Source of the DNA: Hyalella azteca
Taxonomy: Eukaryota; Arthropoda; Malacostraca; Amphipoda; Hyalellidae
Assembly: GCF_000764305.2 (NCBI RefSeq)
Contig: NW_025934720.1
Location: 1,102,738-1,166,737, forward strand
Length of the DNA: 64,000 nucleotides
Direction of reading: 5' to 3'
Part shown: positions 56,342 through 58,468 of the stretch, piece by piece
Layout of the letters: the number at the start of each line of letters is the position of its first letter
Numbering within the stretch: position 1 is the first letter of the stretch
Translations under genes and position numbers: made by a program
Notes under the pieces: model-generated
Told to the model about the DNA's origin: nothing
Databases searched by the model: none
What the model saw: only the letters and a program-made list of their open reading frames with translations

Positions 56342-58468
56342 ATGTTTAATATGGATCAGCGAACGAGGTCGCTAGACAGAGGTCTCAACAGCCGAACTTC
56401 ATTCTATAAGAGCAAGAAACATTCCGTGATGCCACTGCTCCATGATCACTACAAGAACACGGAAATCATCTACGGTGACCCCAATATTCTGCACTACGGA
56501 GCGATGATAAAGAAAACGCCGTTTTCTTCTAAGCACCCCATTCAGAAAGCCAAATCATACCACGAACTAAAAGAAGCGGCTAGAGGTAACTCCGCCGACA
56601 GATGGATGCGGTCTCATCAACGAAGCGAGATTAATTTGTTAAATTGTAGATATGATACCTCGGACGCAACGTGCGCTGAAAACTATTTCCAAAATTGCCC
56701 CGATGCCGGACCTGATAGATCAAAAAACGGCAAAATCGTTTCGAAATCTGAGAAAAATCTTTTCGAGAAGTACCTGCATTCCATATTTTCTTTTTCCCCG
56801 TTCCGAAATGGTACCTCAAATAAGAATGGCCAGAAAAACCTTTTGTATTGTTATCAGAACACATTATCAACCCAAAAGAAAAATTTATCCACAGAACCAC
56901 CGTCCGAGTCTCGCAACTCGCAAGATGAGCAGATGCTGCTGAAGCATCAGTGCCACGAATACCCAACTAATTGCTTGAATAGTCAGCGGAACTCCGTTGC
57001 CTTTGATAAATTCCCCGACAATGTGAAGAATCAGTGTTATCGAGAGCTGCCGGTGGCAGAGGATTTAAGAGAAAGTCCTCGGAGCGCACGCTATGCCACT
57101 TTGGTAAGCTGTGGTCATAATCCATCATACTTCACAATCCTCGATAATCCTAATGATGTTCACTATGCGACCATTATCCGAAATCCAAGCTCGAGATCTA
57201 AACATCGTTCACCGGGACGCAATGATGCTAACCGTAAAGGTGAACGTCTGTATGTAAAACGAGGAAACCGTTATCACAGCGCGTCTAAAGACGATACATA
57301 CGCTGTTCCTATTCGCACGACAAGAACAGAACGCGACCGCTCCTCTCCGATCTACGCTTCTGTTGTTACTGACCACAATCGCAACCACGCACCTACTTGC
57401 GGCACTCGTGCGGCGCTGCTCAGATCTGACAGTTCCGACAGTTACCCCTCCGATAGCCCGTATGCTACTATCTACTCTGATGTGTATCCTGCCGCTGAAA
57501 TATTGAATGATGCTAGGATGCCTGTAGAGCAGCACAGAAATGTAAAATCTCGGAGATTACGACGAAAGGATCATCATTACGCGTGCACGTCTCTAGGGCC
57601 GGCACAAGTCTGCAACCTCAATACCCTGTCCAATGGACGCGTCTATGCTGGTGAGAACCCATCTCAAAAAGTTAATGGAATTTGTCGCTTGGATAGAAGC
57701 AAAAGCACACCATACCTGAATACGGGCGAAAATTCTACTGTGGCGAAAAAGTTTAATATGAAGACTACGATTCAAAGAATGGACGATATTATCATCAGTC
57801 AGGATGTGGAGACACCAACGACTGCAAGAGATGATGGCGCTGGCCTGAACAAGGAAGCGAGGAACCGAACTAATAACGGTCGTGATGAGCATTCTATTTC
57901 TGCTCGCATTACGTCTGGAGACCAGTGCAAAATACATCCTACACAAAATAACTATAAATATTTTAATGGGCGTTCTCGAGCTCATGATGCTGCAACGTCT
58001 GATGAAAGTTTTCCATTTCGTTGTAATCAGAATGCGCATTCCAAGAAATACGACACTCACCAATGCAACACCCCCGACGTGCACAATTGGAATGAACATG
58101 TCCTAGGTCCTTGCACAGGCAATATTTACAATTCTAATTATTTTCATAATCCAAAAGTGATTGTATCTTCTAATTGTGGTCCTGACTTCACCCAACGTCC
58201 CAGACACATCCCTTATAATACTCAGGAAAGCGTGATCGTTCCGTTACGACCAACCTATCTCAACCCTCTCGCAGTGAGTAACTGTGAGCCACACCTAGCA
58301 ATGCCTGGCTTACCTTTCTTGCGGTGGCCTGCGAAGGCTAAGAATCAAAGACGACCGATTAGTTACCACGGCGGACTGCCAACACCTCATCCTTACATCA
58401 ATGCTAAGCCTGTCACTCTCTACGATGACCTCGACCAGAGTATTGCCTACATTATTTACGAGAGACCT
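56342..58468 (+). CDS. dlg1: Candidate long first coding exon of dlg1 (709 codons, tyrosine-motif rich)
   Basis: The frame opens at ATG 56342 (A at -1, G at -3; in-frame TAA at 56336) and runs to a consensus donor (gagacct|gtaagt, 58469) in phase 0, matching the PDZ1 exon 955 bp downstream. Read through, it would stop nine codons later. A possible 5' UTR acceptor (gcggctgcag) ends at 56330. The protein has no domain I recognise. It is polar, basic and low in hydrophobic blocks, so probably largely disordered. A cluster of Y-A-[TS]-[LIV] motifs lies at residues 251 (YATL), 275 (YATI), 338 (YASV) and 374 (YATI), with YFTI at 263. Those at 275 and 374 fit the ITIM pattern [SIVL]xYxx[ILV]. Y-x-N motifs occur near 37, 171, 458, 540, 639 and 685. 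Such motifs suggest SH2-domain binding if phosphorylated, which is inference. Minus-strand frames inside are shadows. It could instead be a separate intronless gene just upstream of dlg1. Confidence 0.7.

What the first reader, a model, noticed from the sequence alone, without database searches (positions are those of the whole stretch)
56342..58468. A 709-codon first exon that may give Dlg a long tyrosine-motif N terminus
The sequence shows a long uninterrupted frame with a good start context, a consensus phase-0 donor and a compatible PDZ1 acceptor 955 bp away. It carries four Y-A-[TS]-[LIV] motifs plus one YFTI clustered in residues 251-375, and six Y-x-N motifs spread from 37 to 685. By established SH2 knowledge, Y-x-N is the Grb2/Drk preference and [SIVL]xYxx[ILV] is the ITIM pattern for SHP-type phosphatases. 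The classical Dlg N terminus is an L27 domain instead. If spliced, this would give a Dlg isoform that couples a PDZ scaffold to tyrosine-kinase signalling. I do not know such an isoform in well-studied arthropods.
Basis: partly seen in the sequence, partly recalled or inferred. Interest (0 to 1): 0.85.

Follow-up and report, generated by a model that had tools for sequence, protein, structure and literature searches.

The report
Giant alternative Dlg first exon, amphipods
In this amphipod crustacean the cell-polarity scaffold gene discs large appears to carry a huge extra starting piece of about 700 amino acids, probably used in place of its usual L27 start, and a shorter version of the same piece occurs in lobsters, crayfish and shrimps.

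Summary
The window is the last 64 kb of a Hyalella azteca (amphipod) contig. The 709-codon frame, phase-0 donor and 955-bp intron to Dlg PDZ1 are real. The join is supported from outside: a 1589-aa Trinorchestia longiramus Dlg model has a homologous 875-aa N terminus and reads YIIYERL-SSPEWEM across the predicted junction. Six decapod Dlg isoforms have a 158-200 aa N terminus whose last 22 columns align with the end of the amphipod exon, E 1e-7. So this is very probably an alternative first coding exon of Dlg, shared by malacostracans and far longer in the two amphipods seen. A TAA before the ATG makes it exclusive of L27, whose exon lies 340 kb upstream. The SH2 story is weak: YA[TS][LIV] is enriched (4 vs 0.05) but two of four sites are conserved; Y-x-N and ITIM counts are near chance. 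The most widely kept tyrosines lie in YD[ED]xxxSIAYIxYER beside PDZ1. No RNA data could be searched, and no Hyalella protein record across the junction was found. New variant of a known kind.

The parts
56342..58468 (+). Alternative first coding exon of Dlg: 709 codons, phase-0 end
   Evidence: Open frame and chance estimate; homologous N terminus fused to Dlg in Trinorchestia P0004
56336..56338 (+). In-frame TAA two codons before the ATG: no in-frame entry from upstream exons, so this is a first coding exon
56331..56341 (+). Possible 5' UTR acceptor (ctgcag|GAAAG), untested
   Evidence: sequence only
57092..57472 (+). Region coding YATL251 to YATI374-377 (tyrosine cluster); YATL251 and YATI275 conserved in Trinorchestia
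58415..58468 (+). Exon-end motif TLYDDLDQSIAYIIYERP, shared by amphipods and decapods
58469..59423 (+). 955-bp intron, GTAAGT...TTGCAG
59424..59521 (+). Dlg PDZ1 exon, first part (SSPEWEMLDIALERG...NPHIG)
60249..60420 (+). Dlg PDZ1, second part (SDTSIYITKL...NNVRL)
61852..62073 (+). Dlg PDZ2, first part
63091..63333 (+). Dlg PDZ2, second part and linker (tblastn extent; exon end not settled)
63591..63683 (+). Next Dlg linker exon (PPPLEMYNNNVVDG...), near the contig end
5328..5423 (+). Probable upstream Dlg exon of the L27 route (KGDRADREGPPKLSAAQKKAISALDGIPRGLK), phase 0 at both ends, donor AAA|GTGAGT; could use the same PDZ1 acceptor
   Evidence: Weak tblastn matches to decapod P0022 and P0042 (E 0.003, 0.004) and P0026 (0.68); boundaries; segment follows an L27-like end in partial decapod P0028

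Best explanation
The frame is an alternative first coding exon of Hyalella discs large, in the last intron before PDZ1. SHOWN from sequence: it is coding, has a phase-0 donor into PDZ1, cannot be entered in frame from upstream exons because of a TAA just before the ATG, and is matched by the N terminus of a Trinorchestia Dlg model that reads across the same junction; decapod Dlg isoforms share the exon's end. INFERRED: an internal promoter starts this transcript, giving a Dlg without L27 (hence outside L27-based assembly) but with a long, mostly disordered, basic N terminus. INFERRED and less certain: the N terminus acts as a tether of short docking motifs, and the conserved YD[ED]xxxSIAYIxYER segment, ending about ten residues before the PDZ1 domain match, is a regulatory site, perhaps a tyrosine-phosphorylation switch like the one proposed for Y222 of vertebrate Dlg1.
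For: Frame length and chance estimate. Trinorchestia P0004, 3 PDZ + SH3 + GK, N terminus 43% identical over P0001 1-379 (263 bits) and 51% over 624-708, reading YIIYERL-SSPEWEM across the junction. That annotation used RNA-seq and Iso-seq hints (PMC7062882, passages). P0004 also matches parts of the frame that the Hyalella model HAZT007571 leaves out (82-184, 255-474, 514-709). Six decapod isoforms P0012-P0017 end in YER[LA] after S[IM]A[YH]I right before the shared PDZ1 exon; profile comparison E 1e-7, probability 94%, over the last 22 columns of both. L27 exon 340 kb upstream on the same contig and strand; probable L27-route exon at 5328-5423 with a phase-0 donor. One match in the genome. 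Charge-hydropathy on the disordered side for 6 of 7 100-residue windows.
Against: No RNA data could be searched, and no Hyalella protein across 58468|59424 was found (each limited in protein length and words). HAZT007571 cuts the frame into three pieces and leaves it early for an acceptor about 15 nt upstream of 59424. Trinorchestia's exon structure and RNA support at this gene were not seen. An ATTAAA at 58599 could end a short transcript. No promoter test. Decapod homology rests on about 20 residues, and one decapod-type N terminus (P0046) lacks the motif. The switch role is untested.
Confidence: 0.82

Rival explanations
1. Tyrosine-signalling scaffold: the YAT array and Y-x-N sites recruit SH2 proteins (Corkscrew/SHP type and Drk/Grb2; preferences recalled, from no call), coupling Dlg to tyrosine kinases.
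For: YA[TS][LIV] enriched in both amphipods: 4 and 3 against 0.05 and 0.06 expected; YATL251 and YATI275 kept, and Trinorchestia has a third YATL in a nearby insertion. Trinorchestia has three strict ITIM-pattern sites of its own (ISYHEL, LNYERL, IIYERL). Vertebrate Dlg1 N-terminal splice variants do couple to Lck (PMC4505885, passages).
Against: Y-x-N near chance in both species (6 vs 3.4; 8 vs 4.6, 383 of 5000 shuffles) and 2 of 6 positions kept; strict ITIM count near chance in Hyalella, and neither of its two sites stays strict in Trinorchestia; no YA[TS][LIV] in 7 decapod-type N termini. No phosphorylation data.
Confidence: 0.2
2. A short 718-aa protein without PDZ domains, from a transcript that reads through the donor and ends after TGA 58498, either only this or in addition to the Dlg form.
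For: TGA 30 nt after the donor and ATTAAA at 58599.
Against: The homologous N terminus is fused to Dlg in Trinorchestia, and its end to Dlg in six decapod isoforms, at the same residue.
Confidence: 0.08
3. The frame is split by real introns as in HAZT007571, so that most of the tyrosine cluster is normally removed.
For: GenBank model P0002 does this.
Against: The two supposed internal introns (about codons 82-184 and 255-474) are open in frame and are matched by protein sequence in Trinorchestia; the acceptor of the second reads AATATGAAG, a poor site (read).
Confidence: 0.06

Closest known systems
Decapod Dlg isoforms, e.g. Homarus americanus 'disks large 1 tumor suppressor protein-like isoform X2' (P0013)
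   Same: Alternative N terminus joined at the same place before PDZ1; start MSGSQRRSRSF resembles MFNMDQRTRSL (three of six have such a start); end CYDENDDSIAYIVYERL
   Different: 158-200 residues instead of 709; 4-6 tyrosines and no YA[TS][LIV] motif (six proteins)
Trinorchestia longiramus 'SH3 domain' protein (P0004)
   Same: Homologous N terminus and same junction; 41% identity in the global alignment
   Different: 875 instead of 709 residues; YFTI263 and YATI374 absent, YASV338 not aligned with a Tyr
Drosophila DlgA versus DlgS97 (PMC3492131, passages)
   Same: One gene, L27 and non-L27 products differing in the N terminus
   Different: The DlgA-type N terminus of the fruit fly Anastrepha (P0024) is about 50 residues and has no match to the frame
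Mouse Dlg2 alternative N termini (PMC6389146, passages and abstract)
   Same: Alternative promoters give alternative first exons ahead of common exons
   Different: No 700-residue tyrosine-rich form is described in the passages read
Vertebrate Dlg1 i1A/i1B variants and Y222 (PMC4505885, passages)
   Same: Variable region before PDZ1 that couples Dlg to a tyrosine kinase; a tyrosine proposed as a conformational switch
   Different: i1A is proline-rich and predicted to bind the Lck SH3; here P-x-x-P is not enriched (2 vs 3.3 expected)

Membership tests
Discs large (DLG-MAGUK) isoform | Three PDZ, SH3 and GK domains after the N terminus | tested here: inconclusive
   In Hyalella only PDZ1 and PDZ2 exons are seen before the contig ends; the search for the rest did not complete. 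Complete in Trinorchestia P0004
Discs large (DLG-MAGUK) isoform | N-terminal exon spliced to the PDZ1 exon | tested here: inconclusive
   Phase-compatible sites and same junction in a second amphipod protein; no cDNA available
DlgS97/SAP97 (L27) isoform | L27 domain in the N terminus | tested here: not met
   No L27 match in the 709 residues; TAA before the ATG; the L27 exon is 340 kb upstream
Malacostracan YERL-type Dlg N terminus (named here) | YD[ED]xxxSIAYIxYER directly before the PDZ1 exon | tested here: met
   Hyalella has TLYDDLDQSIAYIIYERP
ITIM-bearing protein | Conserved [SIVL]xYxx[ILV] sites above chance | tested here: not met
   2 vs 1.3 expected; VHYATI faces FQYATI and SPYATI faces NPHVII in Trinorchestia. 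Against this: IxYERL at the exon end fits the pattern in P0004 and P0013-P0017, but Hyalella has Pro and P0012 Ala there
Grb2/Drk docking protein | Y-x-N sites above chance and conserved | tested here: not met
   6 vs 3.4 expected; 2 of 6 positions kept
Tyrosine-phosphorylated scaffold | Phosphotyrosine in vivo and SH2 binding | not testable with these tools
   No proteomics

The most novel reading that the evidence does not exclude
Malacostracans share a Dlg isoform class in which a conserved tyrosine-bearing segment beside PDZ1 is a phospho-switch on the scaffold, and talitroid amphipods have an N terminus about four times the decapod length with a repeated YAT[LI] docking array, making Dlg itself a multi-site tyrosine-kinase substrate that is exclusive of L27 assembly.
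Probability: 0.18. Interest if true: 0.65.

Novelty: new variant of a known kind. Interest (0 to 1): 0.47.

Why it matters
Dlg is a textbook polarity and synapse scaffold whose fly isoforms are sorted by L27 or no L27. A non-L27 form with 700-875 extra residues, rooted in a first exon shared by amphipods and decapods, would show that a regulatory N terminus can change severalfold in length between lineages while the scaffold core stays fixed, and it gives a short conserved segment next to PDZ1 that can be tested directly. It also suggests that the public Hyalella gene model (HAZT007571) is wrong here. In print: the listings of paper searches (7, 0, 8 and 1 papers) named no such isoform; only open-licence PMC text was searched, and most of the listed papers were seen as titles and abstract beginnings.

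Tried and rejected
Pfam and PDB searches of the 709 residues found nothing usable (one sub-threshold Hormone_4 match, E 0.75, rejected). A DlgA-like short first exon and an L27 exon were sought in the window with recalled fly and L27 sequences: no credible hit apart from PDZ1/PDZ2. Homology search 3, for proteins of about 150-476 aa carrying the exon end, had 6 candidates and returned only the known gene model at E 3.5. Of the 122 proteins collected (P0001-P0122), a motif scan for [YH]IxYER hit 7, all crustacean (P0004, P0012-P0017); P0001 ends at YERP and could not match because the pattern needs 12 further residues. P0046 (no name given by its source; 899 aa on a 2976-base contig, so probably cDNA) has the decapod-type start and middle but a different end, WDNNDNIIYITDDPSP: a result against strict conservation. 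Whether the exon grew in amphipods or shrank in decapods was not tested. The L27 family search rang once more in the genome below the cut-off (C85, E 0.46) and once, below the cut-off, in a bacterial control. The rest of Dlg (PDZ3-SH3-GK) and a P0022-type exon in Hyalella could not be looked up. Disorder is judged by charge-hydropathy only, with one 100-residue window (601-700) marginally on the ordered side; the scales, and the splice weight matrix, were typed from recall. A crayfish transcriptome paper (PMC9966960, passages) concerns DLG5, not this gene.

Full report
WHERE IT IS. The window is G000:C1201:1102738-1166737 of a 519-Mb assembly. The one protein hit of the first search is HAZT_HAZT007571 of Hyalella azteca, on a contig of 1,166,737 bases, so the window is the last 64 kb of that amphipod contig. 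The frame has one match in the genome.

THE OBSERVATION. The frame 56342-58468 is 709 codons and would run 9 codons further to a TGA. From its base composition such a frame is expected about 1e-13 times in the window; 200 Markov simulations of the window gave a longest stop-to-stop frame of 251 codons. The donor is CCT|GTAAGT, phase 0, and the next Dlg exon starts at 59424 after a 955-bp intron. PDZ1 and PDZ2 exons follow at 59424-59521, 60249-60420, 61852-62073 and 63091 onward.

IT IS A DLG EXON. Homology search 2 used the last 100 residues of the frame plus PDZ1 and found P0004, a 1589-aa protein of the talitrid amphipod Trinorchestia longiramus named only 'SH3 domain'. Pfam finds three PDZ, SH3 and guanylate kinase in it. 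Its first 875 residues align with the frame: 43% identity over residues 1-379, 51% over 624-708, 282 of 708 residues identical in the global alignment. Where Hyalella would read YIIYERP|SSPEWEM, Trinorchestia reads YIIYERL-SSPEWEM. The Trinorchestia annotation used RNA-seq and Iso-seq hints, and also homology to several species including H. azteca (PMC7062882, passages). Copying from the H. azteca model cannot explain the match, because that model keeps only about residues 4-81, 185-254 and 475-513 of the frame and Trinorchestia matches much of the rest as well. I did not see the exon structure of, or RNA support for, this particular Trinorchestia gene.

DECAPOD COUNTERPARTS. Six named decapod Dlg isoforms from the same search (P0012-P0017: Cherax, Homarus, two Penaeus, Panulirus, Palaemon) start with a 158-200 aa N terminus, opening like MSGSQRRSRSF in three of the six, and end with CYDENDDSIAYIVYERL or close variants directly before the PDZ1 part. 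A profile comparison of the two amphipod N termini with seven decapod-type N termini aligns the last 22 columns of both, in register with the end (E 1e-7 for this one comparison, probability 94%, 55% identity). Nothing else of the exon aligns by profile, though the starts look alike (P0012 1-18 against the frame start, E 0.85 in the window). The seventh, P0046, lacks the end motif. I read this as one malacostracan first exon whose middle has diverged in sequence and length; which side changed was not tested.

OTHER DLG START SITES. A Dlg-type L27 exon lies on the same contig and strand at 819307-819441 (75.9 bits, cut-off 29.7; sequence read), about 340 kb upstream of the long exon. A 96-nt exon at 5328-5423, phase 0 on both sides, resembles the decapod segment PPVSAAQMRDIATLDGVPR (weak tblastn, E 0.003, 0.004 and 0.68). 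A partial Cherax protein, P0028, begins with FYEITLLDDSK, which I take as the end of an L27 domain by its likeness to P0111 (Pfam did not call it), then has this segment, then PDZ1. So two routes, L27 and long exon, have phase-compatible donors for one PDZ1 acceptor. Because TAA lies two codons before the ATG, the long exon cannot be an in-frame internal exon; the isoform must lack L27. An internal promoter is inferred, not shown.

WHAT THE PROTEIN PART MAY DO. No known domain. Ser, Asn, Arg and Pro are the commonest residues; the net charge is +29, and six of seven 100-residue windows fall on the disordered side of the charge-hydropathy line. Conservation is highest in residues 1-100 (58%) and 651-708. 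YA[TS][LIV] is enriched in both amphipods, and RYATLVSCGHNPSYFTILDNPNDVHYATIIRNPS / RYATLVRSEHDPSLCTIVRSPRDFQYATIVRSPS looks by eye like a short degenerate repeat. As a tyrosine-signalling device the evidence is thin: tyrosines are conserved about as often as other residues (18 of 38 vs 282 of 708, P 0.21); two of four YA[TS][LIV], two of six Y-x-N and neither strict ITIM are kept; seven decapod-type N termini have no YA[TS][LIV]. Trinorchestia has eight Y-x-N (4.6 expected, 383 of 5000 shuffles) and three strict ITIM-pattern sites of its own. The most widely kept tyrosines are Y694, Y703 and Y706 at the exon end; Y703 is His in P0016 and P0017. In P0004 and five of the six named decapod proteins the last Tyr sits in a strict [IVL]xYxxL pattern, but in Hyalella and P0012 the last residue is Pro or Ala. 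For comparison, Lck-dependent phosphorylation of Dlg1 on Y222 has been proposed as a conformational switch, and the i1A variant associates with Lck (PMC4505885, passages). Its position against PDZ1 was not given in the passages; six DLG1-type proteins here (five named vertebrates, one unnamed) have YEYEEITLERG at the PDZ1 start. A switch role for the malacostracan motif is my inference.

VERDICT. The exon and its splice into Dlg are very probably real; the claimed Grb2/ITIM coupling is not supported as stated. It is a new variant of a known kind: alternative Dlg N termini are known in flies (PMC3492131, passages) and mice (PMC6389146, passages and abstract). The listings of paper searches named no such form. 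The main gap is the lack of any transcript evidence across 58468|59424 in Hyalella.

Noticed in passing
59235-59301 and 59372-59438: A 67-nt direct repeat (78% identical, 137 nt apart) duplicates the intron end plus the first 15 nt of the PDZ1 exon, giving a decoy acceptor at 59287 whose frame soon stops.
   Followed up: partly
56351-63683: GenBank gene model HAZT007571 cuts introns into an open, conserved frame and uses a doubtful acceptor before PDZ1; it is probably mis-annotated.
   Followed up: yes
17500-18410 and 40650-41510: Long frames, at 40.7-41.5 kb on both strands, with repeated peptides (SSKQSRRSSASR; ARTTRQCTHH) look like minisatellites, not genes.
   Followed up: no
60881-61209: Two 151-nt direct repeats, 85% identical, in the intron between PDZ1 and PDZ2.
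   Followed up: no
L002 1630-1800: After the Dlg L27 exon the exon-end and 5' splice-site sequence (CGTTATTAGGTGAGTA) recurs several times with small changes in the intron, rather like the duplicated acceptor at PDZ1.
   Followed up: no
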